From positions 3,286,001-3,350,000 of the forward strand of contig NZ_CP090640.1 in NCBI RefSeq assembly GCF_029633825.1: a stretch of 64,000 nt of DNA. Direction: 5' to 3'. Of the stretch, positions 34,858 through 40,108 are shown piece after piece. A program made the position numbers and the translations under genes. The DNA is from Burkholderia contaminans (GTDB lineage Bacteria; Pseudomonadota; Gammaproteobacteria; Burkholderiales; Burkholderiaceae). Below the pieces are notes generated by a model that saw only the letters and a program-made list of their open reading frames with translations, was not told where the DNA came from and ran no database searches. How positions within the stretch are numbered: position 1 is the stretch's first letter; every line of letters begins with the position of its first letter.

Positions 34858-36792
34858 TCAGTTGTCGCCGTCCTGCGACTGGCTGGCCGTCGAGCCGTAC
34901 AGCTTCACCTTCGAGCGATCACGCAGCGCGGCGAGATACGCTTCGCCTTCGCTCTGCGCATCGGTCTGCGACATCTGCTGCTGTGCGGCGGCCAGTTGCT
35001 GCGGATCGACCGCCGAGCCCGGGATCACCGCGTTCACGCGGTAGATCGCGTAGCCGTCCGCGCCGAGATCGACACCGACATATGCCGGCAGCGTCTTCGC
35101 GTCGACCTTGTAGACGGCGCTCAGCGCAGCCGGCGTCAGGCCCTGCGACTGCGTGCGCGAGACTTTCTGCGCAGCCCCGAACCCGTCGACCGACTTCGAC
35201 TTCTGCAGTTCGGCGAGCTTCGTTGCGCCCGCCTTCTTCGCGAGTTCCGCAGCCTGCTCGGCAACGACCTTCTGGCGCACGACGTCCTTGATCGCGTCGA
35301 GCGCGGGCACGGCAGCCGGCTTGTAGTCCGTTACGCGCGCCGAGATCAGCGTGTTGTTGCCGACGTCGATCGCCTGCGTGTTGTTCTGGTTCTTCACTGC
35401 GTCGTTCGCGAATACGGCGGCCAGGAACTTCGGATTGTTCAACGGGCTCGTCGGCGGCAGCTGCGGATTCGGCGTCGGCGTGACGGTGGCCGTCTGGATC
35501 GTCAGCTTGTACTTGTCCGCGGCCGGCTGCAGCGTCTTCGCCTTTTCGTAGACGGTGGACGTGAAGCCTTCCGCGTTGTCCGTGAACGCCTTCGATGCGT
35601 ACTGCTGCTTGAGCTCGACTGCGATCTGGTCCTTCACGTCGGCGAACGGCTTGACGGCCGCCGGCTTCACTTCCGTTGCCTTCAGGATGTGGAAGCCCAG
35701 ATCCGACTGCACGACACCGCTCACGTCGCCCTGCTTGAGCGCGAACGCGGCATCGTCGAACGCCTTGCCGCCCGCCGTCGAGCCACGCGCGATGAAGCCG
35801 AGGTCGCCGCCCTTCGCCGCCGACGGTGCGTCCTGCGAGCTCTTCTGCGCGATCTGCGCGAACTGGTCCGGGTGCGCCTTCACGTCGGCCAGCAGCTGCT
35901 CGGCCTTCGTCTTCGCTGCAGCCTTGTCGGCCGCGCTTGCGCTGCCCGGCGCGGCGATGAAGATGTGGCTCACGCGCACCTGTGCCTCGGTGCGGAAGTG
36001 CGTCGGGTTGTCGTCGTAGAACTTCTTGATGTCCGCATCGGTCGGCTGCGCGCTCGCGGCGGCTGCGGCCGGCGAATAGACGAGGTACTGGATCGTCGCG
36101 GTCTCCGGCGTCGCGAAGCTCTGCTTGTGCGCGTCATAGTACGCGGCGAGCTGCGCGTCGGTTGGCTGGACCTTCGCGGCGAAGTCGCTCGTCTTCAGCA
36201 CGAGCGCCTGCACTTCGCGCTGCTGCGCGGCGAGTTCGGACAGGCGTTGCGCGAGGCTCTTCGGCGTGAATGCAGTCGACACGATGCTGGCGGGGATCTG
36301 ATCCAGCGCGAGGCTGTAGCGCACCCGTTCTTGGAATTGCTCCGGCGTCATCCCTTGGAATGACAGCAATTGCGCATAACGTTCGACGTCAATCGTGCCG
36401 TCGGGTTTCTTCGCCGCTGCGACCAACGGCGTGCTCATCAGCGCGTCGCGCACGGCGTTGTCGGATGCGGTCAGATGCAGACGTTGGGTCTCGTCGGCCA
36501 GCACGCGTTGCTGGATCAGGCCATCGAGCACCTGCTTGCGGTGCTCGGGCGTATCGAACATCTTGATGTCGAACTGCCCGCCGAGCGCCTGACGCGCCTG
36601 GTCGATCTGCTGGCGGAACGCGCCGTCGAATTCGACCCGCGTGATCTTGTGCCCGTTGACTGCCGCGACGTTCGCGCTATCGTCGAAGAAACCGCGGAAG
36701 CCTTGGATCCCGACGAAACCCAGCCCCGGCAACACGATCAGGAGCAGGAGCGCCATCATCAGGCGCTGGTGATTACGGAAGAAATCGAGCAT
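34858..36792 (-). CDS. ppiD: PpiD-type periplasmic folding chaperone
   Basis: 644 residues. The N-terminus MLDFFRNHQRLMMALLLLIV is the short cytoplasmic tail and single membrane anchor of PpiD. A SurA_N-like chaperone segment follows (about 35-165), then a parvulin domain at about residues 260-370 (ARGSTAGGKAFDDAAFALKQ, SDLGFHILKATEV) and a long C-terminal domain with SurA-like helices. PpiD works at the periplasmic exit of the Sec translocon. It is the last gene of the lon/clp block and is read in the same direction as the tRNA-Val/tRNA-Asp unit upstream. Confidence 0.94.
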   Translation of the reverse strand: MLDFFRNHQRLMMALLLLIVLPGLGFVGIQGFRGFFDDSANVAAVNGHKITRVEFDGAFRQQIDQARQALGGQFDIKMFDTPEHRKQVLDGLIQQRVLADETQRLHLTASDNAVRDALMSTPLVAAAKKPDGTIDVERYAQLLSFQGMTPEQFQERVRYSLALDQIPASIVSTAFTPKSLAQRLSELAAQQREVQALVLKTSDFAAKVQPTDAQLAAYYDAHKQSFATPETATIQYLVYSPAAAAASAQPTDADIKKFYDDNPTHFRTEAQVRVSHIFIAAPGSASAADKAAAKTKAEQLLADVKAHPDQFAQIAQKSSQDAPSAAKGGDLGFIARGSTAGGKAFDDAAFALKQGDVSGVVQSDLGFHILKATEVKPAAVKPFADVKDQIAVELKQQYASKAFTDNAEGFTSTVYEKAKTLQPAADKYKLTIQTATVTPTPNPQLPPTSPLNNPKFLAAVFANDAVKNQNNTQAIDVGNNTLISARVTDYKPAAVPALDAIKDVVRQKVVAEQAAELAKKAGATKLAELQKSKSVDGFGAAQKVSRTQSQGLTPAALSAVYKVDAKTLPAYVGVDLGADGYAIYRVNAVIPGSAVDPQQLAAAQQQMSQTDAQSEGEAYLAALRDRSKVKLYGSTASQSQDGDN

Positions 36793-36902
36793 GCGTGACG
36801 GGAAAATTGGACAAAACGTCCGATATTACAACATACGGGGTGGGACGGGAGAAAAGCAGACGCACTGCGGGCAAGTACGGCGGAGCAAACAGGCGCATAA
36901 AA

Positions 36903-36933
36903 CGAAAATGTCCGCACAAGGCGGGCACTTTCG
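36903..36933 (-). terminator. terminator-like hairpin at the end of the tRNA-linked repeats
   Basis: On the minus strand GTGCCCGCC and a diverged GCGGACATTTT arm form an imperfect hairpin followed by a T-run. It stands where the repeat units have their own terminator and closes the array before ppiD. Confidence 0.5.
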
Positions 36934-36939
36934 TTTGTT

Positions 36940-37120
36940 TGGCGGAGCGGGACGGGACTCGCCTGCATCCTGCGGGCCGCGGATGCGCGTGCACGCGCAT
37001 CCCTTCGAGTCCCGCCGGAAGCCGCGCAAGCTTCCTTCACTCCGCAGTCACGCGCCCGCTGGCGGGCGCAACCGGAAACGCAAATGAAAAAGCCCGCACG
37101 AGGCGGGCTTCTTCATTTTC
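36940..37120 (-). repeat. tRNA-linked repeat unit 2 (rtT-like)
   Basis: In transcript direction (high to low coordinates) the unit opens with a terminator-like hairpin at 37086-37110, then hairpin GCGCCCGC/GCGGGCGC, then GGAAGC/GCTTCC, then a 22-bp palindrome at 36981-37002 (half-site GGATGCGCGTG), and ends with a copy of the last 21 nt of tRNA-Asp including CCA (36940-36961, with one extra base). It is about 94% identical to the unit at 37121-37303. The differences include a 3-base length change that keeps a hairpin, which suggests that structure is maintained. Confidence 0.8.
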
Positions 37121-37303
37121 TGGCGGAGCGGACGGGACTCGCCTACATCCTGCAGGCCGCGGATGCGCGTGCACGCGCATCCCTTCGAGTCCCGCCGGAA
37201 GCTGCGCAGGCAGCTTCCTCCACTCCGCAGTCACGCGCCCGCCAGCGGGCGCAACCGAAAACGCAAATGAAAAAGCCCGCGCGAGGCGGGCTTCTTCATT
37301 TTC
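37121..37303 (-). repeat. tRNA-linked repeat unit 1 (rtT-like)
   Basis: The unit directly after tRNA-Asp. It contains a terminator-like hairpin at 37268-37292 (AGCCCGCCTCGCGCGGGCT on the minus strand, then TTTTT), hairpins GCGCCCGC/GCGGGCGC and GGAAGCTGC/GCAGCTTCC, the 22-bp palindrome at 37161-37182, and an exact copy of the last 21 nt of tRNA-Asp at 37121-37141. The arms GGGACTCG and CGAGTCCC also pair across the palindrome. The period to the next copy is 181-183 bp. Confidence 0.85.
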
Positions 37304-37380
37304 TGGCGGAGCGGACGGGACTCGAACCCGCGACCCCCGGCGTGACAGGCCGGTATTCTAACCGACTGAACTACCGCTCC
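37304..37380 (-). tRNA. tRNA-Asp (GTC)
   Basis: A 77-nt cloverleaf with encoded CCA. The acceptor arms are GGAGCGG and CCGCTCC, the D-loop is AGTCGGTTAGAA, the anticodon loop reads CTGTCAC with anticodon GTC, and the T-arm is GGGTTCGAGTCCCG. It lies 23 bp after tRNA-Val on the same strand and is followed by the two repeat units that copy its 3' end. Confidence 0.97.
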
Positions 37381-37403
37381 TTGGTCTGGCTGAATCAGGA
37401 AAC

Positions 37404-37479
37404 TGGTGGGTGCTGAGGGGTTCGAACCCCCGACCTACGCCTTGTAAGGGCGCCGCTCTACCAGCTGAGCTAAGCACCC
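37404..37479 (-). tRNA. tRNA-Val (TAC)
   Basis: A 76-nt cloverleaf with encoded CCA. The acceptor arms are GGGTGCT and AGCACCC, the D-arm contains AGCTCAGCTGGTAGAGC, the anticodon loop reads CTTACAA with anticodon TAC, and the T-loop is GGTTCGAACC. It is the first gene of a Val-Asp tRNA pair. Confidence 0.97.
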
Positions 37480-37538
37480 GTTTCCGATTCGTTCTGGCTG
37501 CGATCTGCGTTTCGGCATCAACAACCAGCGAGCCCGCA

Positions 37539-37567
37539 AGTTTAATTCATCCCCGATCATTTTGCAA
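37539..37567 (-). promoter_or_regulatory. promoter of the tRNA-Val/tRNA-Asp unit
   Basis: On the minus strand TTGCAA (37562-37567) and TAAACT (37539-37544) are 17 bp apart, followed by the GC-rich discriminator TGCGGGC typical of stringently controlled stable-RNA promoters. Confidence 0.65.
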
Positions 37568-37619
37568 AGCCCTGACGCGAATTTTTTAAACGTTCACGCA
37601 CACGATTCGGCGACGCATA

Positions 37620-37648
37620 AAAAAAACCCGCGGCTATGCCGCGGGTTT
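37620..37648 (-). terminator. lon terminator
   Basis: On the minus strand AAACCCGCGGC and GCCGCGGGTTTT arms around a 4-nt loop, followed by a run of T. It lies 37 bp past the lon stop codon. Confidence 0.9.
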
Positions 37649-37684
37649 CGTGAACAACCGTCAGGAACGACGGTGTCCGGATGC

Positions 37685-40108
37685 TCAGTGCTTGACGAAT
37701 TCCGTCGAGCCGGCGTCCTTCGCCGCATCGGCGACCGGTGCCGCCGCCTTCGCCTCTTCTTCCGGCGGCAGCGGGGTCGGCGAACGCTCGAGCGCGAGTT
37801 CCAGCACCTTGTCGATCCAGCGGACCGGCACGATCTCGATCGCGTTCTTCACGTTGTCCGGAATCTCGGCGAGATCCTTCACGTTCTCTTCGGGGATCAG
37901 CACGAGCTTGATGCCACCGCGATGCGCGGCGAGCAGCTTCTCCTTCAGACCACCGATCGGCAGGACTTCACCACGCAGCGTGATTTCGCCCGTCATCGCG
38001 ACATCGGCACGCACGGGGATACCCGTCAGCACCGACACCAGCGCGGTCGTCATCGCACCGCCGGCGGACGGACCGTCCTTCGGCGTCGCGCCTTCCGGCA
38101 CGTGAATGTGGATGTCCTGCTTCTCGAACGCTTCGTCCTTGATGCCGAGACGACGCGAGCGCGAGCGCACGACCGAACGTGCCGCCTCGACCGACTCCTT
38201 CATCACGTCGCCGAGCGAACCCGTACGGATCACGTTGCCCTTGCCAGGCATCACCGCGGCTTCGATCGTCAGCAGATCGCCACCGACTTCCGTCCACGCG
38301 AGGCCCGTCACCTGACCGACCTGGTTTTCCTTCGCCGCGAGGCCGAAGTCGTACTTGCGTACGCCGAGGAACGTATCGAGGTTTTCGCCGTCGACCTTGA
38401 TCGCGCCCGATGCCTTCTTCAGCAGCAGCATCTTCACGACCTTGCGGCAGATCTTCGACACTTCCCGCTCGAGCGAACGCACACCGGCTTCGCGCGTGTA
38501 GTAGCGGATGATGTCGCGGATCGCCTGCTCGGTGACCTCGATCTCGCCTTCCTTCAGCCCGTTGTTCTTCTTCTGCTTCGGCAGCAGGTAACGCTGGGCG
38601 ATGCTGACCTTCTCGTCTTCCGTGTAACCCGACAGGCGGATCACTTCCATCCGGTCGAGCAGCGGCGGCGGGATGTTCAGCGAGTTCGACGTCGCGACGA
38701 ACATCACGTCCGACAGGTCGAAGTCGACTTCGATGTAGTGGTCGGCGAACGTGTGGTTCTGTTCCGGATCGAGCACTTCGAGCAGCGCCGACGACGGATC
38801 GCCGCGGAAATCCATGCCCATCTTGTCGACTTCGTCGAGCAGGAAGAGCGGATTGCGCACGCCGACCTTCGTGAGGCTCTGCAGGATCTTGCCCGGCATC
38901 GAACCGATGTACGTACGACGGTGGCCACGGATCTCGGCTTCGTCACGCACGCCGCCGAGCGCCATCCGGACGAACTTGCGGTTCGTCGCGCGGGCGATCG
39001 ACTGGCCGAGCGAGGTCTTGCCGACGCCCGGGGGCCCGACGAGGCACAGGATCGGCGCCTTCACCTTGTCGACGCGCTGTTGCACCGCGAGATACTCGAG
39101 GATGCGTTCCTTCACCTTCTCGAGGCCGAAGTGATCCTCGTCGAGCACCTGCTCGGCGTTCGACAGGTCGTTGTTGACCTTGCTCTTCTTGCGCCACGGC
39201 AGGCCGATCAGCGTGTCGATGTAGTTGCGCACGACGGTCGCTTCCGCCGACATCGGCGACATCAGCTTCAGCTTCTTCAGCTCGGCGTCAGCCTTCTTCT
39301 TGGCTTCCTTCGGCATGCGCGCGGCGTTGATGCGCTTCTCGAGTTCCTCGAGATCCGCACCTTCCTCGCCTTCGCCCAGTTCCTTCTGGATCGCCTTGAC
39401 CTGTTCGTTCAGGTAGTACTCGCGCTGGCTCTTTTCCATCTGGCGCTTCACGCGCCCGCGGATGCGCTTTTCGACCTGCAGGTTGTCGATCTCGGCTTCG
39501 AGCTGCGCGAGCAGGTGCTCGAGGCGCTCGATGACCGGGAACATCTCGAGGATGTGCTGCTTCTGGTCGAGCTTCAGCGGCAGGCGCTCGGCGATCATGT
39601 CGGCGAGGCGGCCTGCTTCGTCGATACCCGACAGCGATGTGAGGATCTCCGGCGGGATCTTCTTGTTCAGCTTCACGTACTGGTCGAACTGCGACACGAT
39701 CGCGCGGCGCAGCGCTTCCGTTTCAGCGCTGTCGGCGTGATCGGGCTCGAGCGGCATCACGTCGCAGGAGAATTGCGTTTCCTGCTCTTCGATCGACAAC
39801 GCCTTCGCGCGCTGCAGGCCCTCGACGAGCACCTTCACGGTGCCGTCCGGCAGCTTCAGCATCTGCAGGATGTTGGCGATACAACCGACCTCGTACATGT
39901 CCTTTTCGGTCGGTTCGTCCTTGGCCGCGGTCTTCTGGGCGACGAGCATGATGTGCTTGCCGCCTTCCATCGCTGCTTCGAGGGCCTTGATCGATTTCGG
40001 CCGGCCCACGAAGAGCGGAATCACCATGTGCGGGAAAACGACGACATCCCGCAGCGGCAGCAGCGGGAGCGTGATGCGTTCCGGCGGGAGAAGTTGGGTG
40101 CCTGACAT
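37685..40108 (-). CDS. lon: ATP-dependent protease La
   Basis: 807 residues, standard Lon length. The N-terminal substrate-recognition domain ([20 protein letters not shown]) is followed by the AAA+ module with Walker [14 protein letters not shown] near residue 360 and the C-terminal protease domain with the catalytic Ser in [10 protein letters not shown] and the Lys in [14 protein letters not shown]. Lon degrades damaged and regulatory proteins in the cytoplasm. The C-terminus has an Ala/Glu-rich tail ([20 protein letters not shown]). Gene order tig-clpP-clpX-lon is conserved in proteobacteria. Confidence 0.98.

What the first reader, a model, noticed from the sequence alone, without database searches (positions are those of the whole stretch)
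36940..37380. rtT-like tandem repeats behind tRNA-Asp, each carrying the tRNA 3' end
Two units of 181 and 183 bp, about 94% identical, follow tRNA-Asp in its transcription direction. Each ends with the last 21 nt of the tRNA, CCA included (one copy exact, one with an extra base), and contains a 22-bp palindrome, two further hairpins and a terminator-like hairpin. One hairpin differs in length between units but stays paired, which suggests the RNA structure is kept. E. coli tyrT is followed by 178-bp repeats that each hold the last 19 bp of the tRNA gene and give rise to rtT RNA. The same design on a different tRNA in another class of bacteria would be convergent or an unrecognised general system. 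I know of no description for Burkholderia.
Basis: partly seen in the sequence, partly recalled or inferred. Interest (0 to 1): 0.78.

Follow-up and report, generated by a model that had tools for sequence, protein, structure and literature searches.

The report
tRNA-capped repeat RNAs in Burkholderiales
Behind several tRNA genes of Burkholderia and related bacteria sit short repeated units that rebuild the end of the tRNA and fold into one shared elaborate shape, which looks like an uncatalogued family of structured RNAs resembling a poorly understood E. coli group.

Summary
In detail: two units of 183 and 181 bp (172 of 184 aligned columns identical) follow tRNA-Asp, each ending in the tRNA 3' end. 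A near-identical unit lies behind a second tRNA-Asp cluster of the same genome.

Overlooked: each unit also holds an antisense copy of the tRNA's acceptor and T-stem strands, split by a hairpin. It folds as an acceptor/T-stem helix with a CCA end, a conserved three-way junction replacing the T-loop. The same core occurs behind tRNA-Asp, Leu, Ser, Glu and Arg in Burkholderia, Cupriavidus and Oxalobacteraceae, with T-stem arms matched to the local tRNA. Covariation score 0.503 against 0.155 shuffled, 0 of 500 as high. A model of the fold hits 50 of 65 genomes of the genus and none outside Burkholderiales in the samples searched.

E. coli tRNA-linked repeats (TLR/rtT) share the layout, but neither covariance model recognises the other group in what was searched. 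Best reading: a TLR-like structured RNA family, unlisted in Rfam 15, transcribed with tRNAs by read-through. Expression and function are untested.

The parts
37404..37479 (-). tRNA-Val(TAC), first gene of the tRNA pair
   Evidence: ARAGORN, Rfam tRNA
37304..37380 (-). tRNA-Asp(GTC), source of the copied 3' end
37121..37303 (-). unit 1 (183 bp)
   Evidence: model R1 match
36940..37120 (-). unit 2 (181 bp)
   Evidence: model R1 match, 89.4 bits
37265..37301 (-). terminator-like hairpin between tRNA-Asp and the fold of unit 1
   Evidence: sequence, paired
37235..37252 (-). 18-nt palindrome hairpin of unit 1 (not in the shared model; its counterpart in unit 2 is 37052-37069)
37219..37228 (-). P1 5' arm of unit 1, complementary to the acceptor part of the copied tRNA end
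37197..37218 (-). P2 hairpin of unit 1 (in unit 2: 37017-37035, shorter but paired)
37184..37194 (-). P3 5' arm of unit 1, complementary to the T-arm part of the copy
37161..37182 (-). P4 hairpin of unit 1, the 22-nt palindrome (in unit 2: 36981-37002)
37141..37157 (-). P5 hairpin of unit 1
37121..37141 (-). copy of the last 21 nt of tRNA-Asp, CCA included, in unit 1 (exact)
37082..37118 (-). terminator-like hairpin between unit 1 and the fold of unit 2
   Evidence: sequence, paired
36940..36961 (-). copy of the tRNA-Asp 3' end in unit 2, with one extra C
36903..36933 (-). terminator-like hairpin after unit 2
   Evidence: sequence; scored on the plus strand

Best explanation
The units belong to a structured non-coding RNA family of Burkholderiales that works like the tRNA-linked repeats (TLR/rtT) of E. 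coli. Shown: each unit pairs its copy of the host tRNA's 3' end with an antisense arm, rebuilding an acceptor/T-stem helix that ends in CCA; a hairpin (P2) stands where a tRNA has its D and anticodon arms, and a three-way junction (P3/P4/P5) replaces the T-loop. Shown: stems covary and T-stem arms follow the tRNA in front, while junction bases stay fixed. Inferred: part of the tRNA transcripts reads through the first terminator; enzymes that mature tRNA 3' ends (RNase E, 3' exonucleases, perhaps RNase P at the 5' side) cut the RNA at the CCA copy; the product is a short RNA with a tRNA-like end, made in proportion to tRNA transcription, with the junction as its working part. Arrays grow and shrink by recombination between repeated terminators and tRNA ends (inferred from empty and truncated sites).
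For: Common fold, z -6.3 (Asp), -6.9 and -5.2 (Ser), -6.1 (Arg), -4.5 (Leu). 39 units: 86.5% of 1631 cells paired against 67.4% shuffled and at most 42.6% slid; covariation 0.503 against 0.155. Leu(CAG) units, not used for the model: 92.4% paired, at most 45.3% slid (alignment fitted to the model). T-stem arm fits its own tRNA best or tied for 8 of 8 tRNA types, some with 1-3 units. Within Asp units: tRNA base T with arm base A in 36 of 41, C with G in 23 of 23 distinct units. 20 of 20 regions fetched around further model hits lie behind a tRNA. Of 139 pattern matches not chosen by tRNA, 104 have a tRNA end within 130 nt upstream against 96 of 2780 random positions. Precedent: E. coli RrA/B/F, also TLRs, are made by read-through and processed (PMC8144298, Discussion part 1).
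Against: No transcript data were seen; none of the passages read in Burkholderia, Herbaspirillum or Cupriavidus transcript papers mentions such RNAs. P1 pairs in only 62% of cells and fits its own tRNA best for 3 of 8 types. In Asp and Ser units the discriminator base is paired, unlike in a tRNA. 27 of 176 units have lost the acceptor/CCA part of the copy. The excess of G-U over A-C, a sign of RNA, holds for P3-P5 but not for P1 or P2; over all helices it is 63 to 64. Units are absent from 15 of 65 genomes of the genus.
Confidence: 0.5

Rival explanations
1. Selfish or neutral tandem repeats: unequal recombination multiplies units, gene conversion with the tRNA keeps the 3' copy exact, and template switching in the hairpin copies the change into the antisense arm. 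No function.
For: Copy number varies from none to at least three per tRNA gene; truncated units are common; two loci of one genome are 97% alike over 194 bp.
Against: P4 and P5, which contain no tRNA sequence, covary as strongly as the arms while junction bases are invariant. Units with a broken copy still keep P3 at 6.85 of 8 pairs (7.34 in intact ones). Units behind one tRNA type look alike across genera (by eye).
Confidence: 0.2
2. Stacked terminators: units insulate the genes behind strongly transcribed tRNAs and act only as terminators and exonuclease blocks.
For: A terminator-like hairpin precedes the fold in the window units and in the Leu(CAG) units.
Against: Some units are only 117-118 bp apart and start 48-54 nt after the tRNA, leaving little or no room for a terminator (L222, L233, L335); termination needs neither the tRNA copy nor an invariant junction.
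Confidence: 0.13
3. [quoted passage not shown]
For: The arm CGGGACTCGAA is complementary to TTCGAGTCCCG of tRNA-Asp, two bases more than to the copy in the unit.
Against: The unit's own copy is nearer, follows the arm and closes a very stable fold; a terminator-like hairpin lies between tRNA and arm.
Confidence: 0.09
4. A DNA element: the palindromes act as cruciform, protein-binding or recombination (att-like) sites, not as RNA.
For: tRNA ends repeated downstream resemble att sites; the Ser(GGA) occupied site differs from an empty one by a unit placed directly after CCA. G-U does not exceed A-C over all helices (63 to 64).
Against: A G-U pair on the tRNA strand is kept in 38 of 39 units, and G-U exceeds A-C in P3-P5 (calculated). 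181-183 bp units leave no room for an integrase gene; none was looked for elsewhere.
Confidence: 0.08

Closest known systems
E. coli tRNA-linked repeats (TLR), including rtT/RttR behind tyrTV (Rfam RF00391 RtT)
   Same: Short units in tandem behind tRNA genes, each ending in the 3' end of the gene in front (exact at tyrV, lysV, argQ, argZ); several tRNAs; an antisense run of 8-10 nt in the Tyr units and imperfect pairing in the Arg units.
   Different: Different core: RtT model finds nothing in this genome or in two other Burkholderia loci, model R1 finds nothing in six E. coli stretches. lysV and 5S units show no antisense run of 7 nt or more. A P2 hairpin between acceptor arm and T-arm was not seen in the E. 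coli folds made.
RrA/RrB/RrF of E. coli rRNA operons
   Same: TLRs between two terminators, made by read-through and processed near the copied end (PMC8144298, passages and Discussion part 1).
   Different: Behind 5S RNA; copy imperfect in rrnB by my scan; CsrA binding there, while GGA in the P5 loop is found in only 9 of 39 units here.
3'ETS-leuZ of E. coli
   Same: A functional RNA derived from a tRNA precursor (introduction of PMC8144298, passage).
   Different: No repeated tRNA end and another function, a sponge for sRNAs (recalled).

Membership tests
tRNA-linked repeats (TLR), as a class defined by layout | Unit located directly downstream of a tRNA or rRNA gene in its direction | tested here: met
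   Window units; 125 of 139 pattern matches have a same-strand tRNA within 700 nt upstream; 20 of 20 regions
tRNA-linked repeats (TLR), as a class defined by layout | 3' end of 18-19 nt identical to the gene in front | tested here: met
   21 nt exact in unit 1, one extra base in unit 2; at most 1 difference in 18 nt in 143 of 176 units
Rfam RF00391 RtT | Match to the covariance model | tested here: not met
   0 matches in this genome, E. coli rings; none in L372 and L378 while E. coli tyr and lysV units pass the gathering score; none at E<=1 in window 36000-38500
TLR/rtT | Transcribed with the tRNA and released as a small RNA | not testable with these tools
   No RNA data at hand
TLR/rtT | Antisense arm pairing with the tRNA-end copy (feature proposed here) | tested here: inconclusive
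   Strong in Burkholderiales; in E. coli present for Tyr, imperfect for Arg, no run of 7 nt for lysV and 5S
CsrA-binding sRNA (as RrB) | GGA motifs kept in hairpin loops | tested here: not met
   GGA in the P5 loop in 9 of 39 units; other loops not tested
Integrated element at a tRNA att site | Mobility gene between the repeated tRNA ends | tested here: not met
   181-183 bp between copies; the ORFs listed there run across units and the tRNA or lie in 65-98 codons without support; no family search was run on them

The most novel reading that the evidence does not exclude
A modular class of tRNA-mimic RNAs: a conserved three-way-junction RNA that borrows the acceptor/T-stem of whichever tRNA gene stands in front, rebuilding both strands of it, so that tRNA enzymes finish and protect it. 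Enteric TLRs and this family would be two lineages of one bacterial strategy that couples a small RNA to tRNA output, old within Burkholderiales and not catalogued there.
Probability: 0.35. Interest if true: 0.85.

Novelty: new variant of a known kind. Interest (0 to 1): 0.7.

Why it matters
Repeated tRNA ends behind tRNA genes were first described in 1978, and a 2021 paper still says that TLRs have no known function apart from the 5S-linked ones it studies (PMC8144298, passages). A second, order-wide family with a sharply defined fold, arms that follow each tRNA, and natural presence and absence among close relatives makes the question testable by comparison. It also gives a covariance model for a structured RNA that none of the Rfam 15 searches made here listed.

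Tried and rejected
CsrA sponge: GGA in the P5 loop in only 9 of 39 units. Membership of Rfam RtT: not met. Protein coding: spacings differ (for example 145-147 bp Ser, 151-156 bp Leu, 181-187 bp most Asp, 152 and 117 bp others), so no frame is kept; window ORFs run through the tRNA. Recent jumping between tRNAs: units of one tRNA type look alike across genera (by eye, 28 rows; no tree was made). First core pattern too loose: 94 of 250 genomes hit, mostly without a palindrome between the fixed parts; the tighter pattern hit 44 of 220 and 32 of 97 genomes and still includes non-palindromic chance hits. The named scan has two likely chance hits, Parahaliea L263 and Actinomadura L290. A GAAGG-type pattern found only 3 units in the last 20 loci because Leu(CAG) units read AAAGG; the covariance model was used instead. 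Literature: ten searches listed no paper on such repeats in Burkholderiales by title or opening of the abstract; two of them listed nothing. Rudd 1999, Egan and Landy 1978 and Bosl and Kersten 1991/1994 were not read and are cited through PMC8144298.

Full report
What is there. On the minus strand tRNA-Val and tRNA-Asp (37404-37479, 37304-37380) lie between two long minus-strand ORFs that I take for lon (37685-40108) and ppiD (34858-36792) from their sequence (recalled, not searched). Two units follow tRNA-Asp. Unit 1 (37121-37303, 183 bp) and unit 2 (36940-37120, 181 bp) agree in 172 of 184 aligned columns; unit 1 ends with the last 21 nt of tRNA-Asp, unit 2 with the same and one extra C. A terminator-like hairpin stands after the tRNA, between the units and after unit 2. 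The region folds with z -10.7.

Same genome. 68 tRNA genes were found. Their 3' flanks were fetched and scanned for another copy of the gene's own 3' end (18 nt, up to 3 mismatches, no gaps, 900 nt downstream, same strand). Only tRNA-Asp has one, at the window and at a second cluster of three Glu-Asp pairs. The ungapped scan misses unit 2 because of its extra base. Model R1 (below) finds three units in the whole genome, these three. The unit at the second locus is 97% identical to the window unit over 194 bp. 5S genes were not scanned for copies by sequence.

The overlooked half. Ahead of the tRNA-end copy each unit carries the complement of that copy in two pieces, one for the acceptor strand and, after a hairpin, one for the T-arm. 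The window unit folds as P1 (9 bp, acceptor-like), P2 (hairpin), P3 (T-stem-like), P4 and P5, with a free CA at the end. P2-P5 recur in the Ser(GGA), Leu(CAA), Ser(TGA), Arg and Glu units folded; P1 varies and is short in the Leu(CAA) one (z -6.3, -6.9, -4.5, -5.2, -6.1 and -3.0; in the Glu unit 1 of 200 shuffles folds as well). In Leu(CAG) units P1 has the register of the tRNA acceptor, GCCCAGGA against TCCTGGGC followed by A and CCA. In the Asp and Ser units the discriminator base is paired, which it is not in a tRNA.

A family. A pattern from the core was run without any condition on tRNAs. Of 139 matches 104 have a same-strand tRNA end within 130 nt upstream, 21 within 131-700 nt and 14 none; nine of the 14 start within 150 nt of the edge of the stretch held, two look like chance, three (L251 twice, L291) stay unexplained. 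Random positions in the same stretches have such a tRNA within 130 nt in 96 of 2780 cases. The nearest tRNAs are Asp, Ser (GGA, GCT, CGA), Glu, Arg(CCG), Leu(CAA), and one Gly whose end is not the one copied.

Arms follow the tRNA. From loci L001-L340 (L032-L070 left out) 176 distinct units with a tRNA upstream were taken by a pattern that requires a P4 stem of at least 5 pairs; 56 duplicates and 9 without a tRNA were dropped. In 143 of 176 the copied 18 nt differ from the tRNA in front by at most 1. Over six T-stem positions the antisense arm fits its own tRNA best or tied for 8 of 8 tRNA types, which hold 1 to 110 units each; Glu and Ser(GGA) tie because their T-stems are alike. For the acceptor arm this is so for 3 of 8 types, Asp, Ser(GGA) and Ser(TGA). 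Within Asp units, where the tRNA gene itself has T or C at one T-stem position, 36 of 41 distinct units with T have A in the arm (4 G, 1 T) and 23 of 23 with C have G (Fisher 1.9e-13 without the one T-T unit and not corrected for descent).

Covariation. Thirty-nine representatives, under 82% identical over hairpin and core, align nearly without gaps. Under the named structure 86.5% of 1631 cells pair, against 67.4% in shuffles and 34.8-42.6% when slid; the covariation score is 0.503 against 0.155 shuffled and at most 0.121 slid; 0 of 500 shuffles reach any of the five observed measures. Paired cells: P1 62%, P2 89%, P3 89%, P4 95%, P5 99.6%. The tool warns that related sequences can exceed shuffles without structure; the slid control keeps relatedness, but favours the true structure if this was derived from the sequences, as here. 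The invariant columns include GAAGGG, GCGGCC and GGCGA at the junction while the stems vary. G-U against A-C cells: P3 12:3, P4 2:1, P5 13:0, but P2 12:15 and P1 24:45; P2-P5 together 39:19, all helices 63:64, with one nearly invariant G-U pair (38 of 39) left out of these counts. This supports RNA for the inner part only.

Independent check. Model R1 hits 50 of 65 genomes of the genus at E<=1e-5. I fetched 20 regions around hits outside the loci known before, not all such hits: 15 lie behind tRNA-Leu(CAG), 3 behind Ser(GGA), 2 behind Asp, 20 of 20. Leu(CAG) was not in the model. Thirty-five matches (32 distinct) in 18 Leu(CAG) stretches pair in 92.4% of cells, against 88.5% shuffled and at most 45.3% slid; this alignment is fitted to the model. 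In the order 11 of 250 genomes match, in seven family groups; of ten loci then inspected nine have a tRNA upstream (Leu, Ser, Glu or Asp) and one, L347, has none. In the class sample (321 genomes) only the window's own genome matches, in the phylum sample (249) only it and another Burkholderiales genome (stricter filters apply in such large searches and lose weak matches).

Dynamics. Units come and go. G000 has none behind Leu(CAG) or Ser(GGA), where relatives have one to three. In Ser(GGA) the occupied site has the unit directly after CCA, ahead of the terminator that the empty site has there (L160 and L063). In Leu(CAG) the terminator is part of the repeat, and a truncated unit lies after a full one. 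The 27 of 176 units with a badly broken copy keep P3 at 6.85 of 8 pairs, against 7.34 in the 143 intact ones.

Comparison with E. coli. TLRs there are known at ten loci, 22 units, with 18-19 bp of the tRNA or rRNA end in front; an early claim for rtT was retracted (PMC8144298, passages). Three behind 5S give sRNAs by read-through of a first terminator, and bind Hfq and CsrA (same paper, passages and Discussion part 1). In MG1655 I found exact copies behind tyrT/tyrV, lysV, argZ and argQ, and a changed one behind rrnB 5S (six stretches looked at, three of them chosen tRNA operons without any copy in part or whole). The tyrV-side Tyr units have an antisense run of 10 nt and the tyrT-tyrV spacer one of 8; the Arg copies pair with 12-15 of 18 nt in predicted folds, lysV with 3-7. 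Rfam RtT passes its gathering score on the Tyr and lysV units and falls just short on an Arg unit; it finds nothing in this genome or in L372 and L378. R1 finds nothing in the six E. coli stretches. Twelve further loci hit no Rfam family but tRNA at gathering level. The units work like TLRs in layout and share no core detectable with these models.

Mechanism and limits. My best reading is a read-through RNA finished by tRNA enzymes, with the junction as working part. Fold, match to the tRNA and conservation pattern are shown; transcription, processing, partner and effect are inferred. Of the transcript papers I saw passages only: PMC5688073 (12 of 25 places), PMC4603805 (7 of 7), PMC7011215 (2 of 2), PMC10175445 (4 of 4), PMC7563307 (12 of 20), and none mentions such RNAs; supplements could not be read.

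Noticed in passing
L031 1285-1607 (same genome, G000:C1:3563784-3564106): The second tRNA-Asp cluster has one full unit and the start of another (terminator and half of the 18-nt hairpin) before unrelated sequence, a truncated array.
   Followed up: partly
L139 (G040:C1:3116281-3117109): In one relative of the same order several tRNA-Val/tRNA-Asp pairs follow each other in tandem (four matches), without a further tRNA-end copy behind the last.
   Followed up: no
L347 1501-1612 (G240:C2:5448-5559): A good model match (80 bits) with no tRNA found within the 3.1 kb held, a possible orphan unit.
   Followed up: partly
L251 996-1042 and 7156-7202 (Lacisediminimonas MAG): Two core matches 6 kb apart on a short contig without a tRNA found in the 8 kb held; the copied ends look like that of tRNA-Ser(CGA).
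   Followed up: no
L351 1380-1594 (family group f4, behind tRNA-Ser(GGA)): The P4/T-arm part of a unit appears twice in a row, a nested repeat inside one unit.
   Followed up: no
L367 (E. coli argQ-argZ-argY stretch): The two Arg units share a core with the 5S unit, CGTTGC..GCAACG followed by GGCCCG.AGGG (by eye); the RtT model scores one Arg unit just under its cut-off and lists none for 5S at E<=0.01.
   Followed up: no
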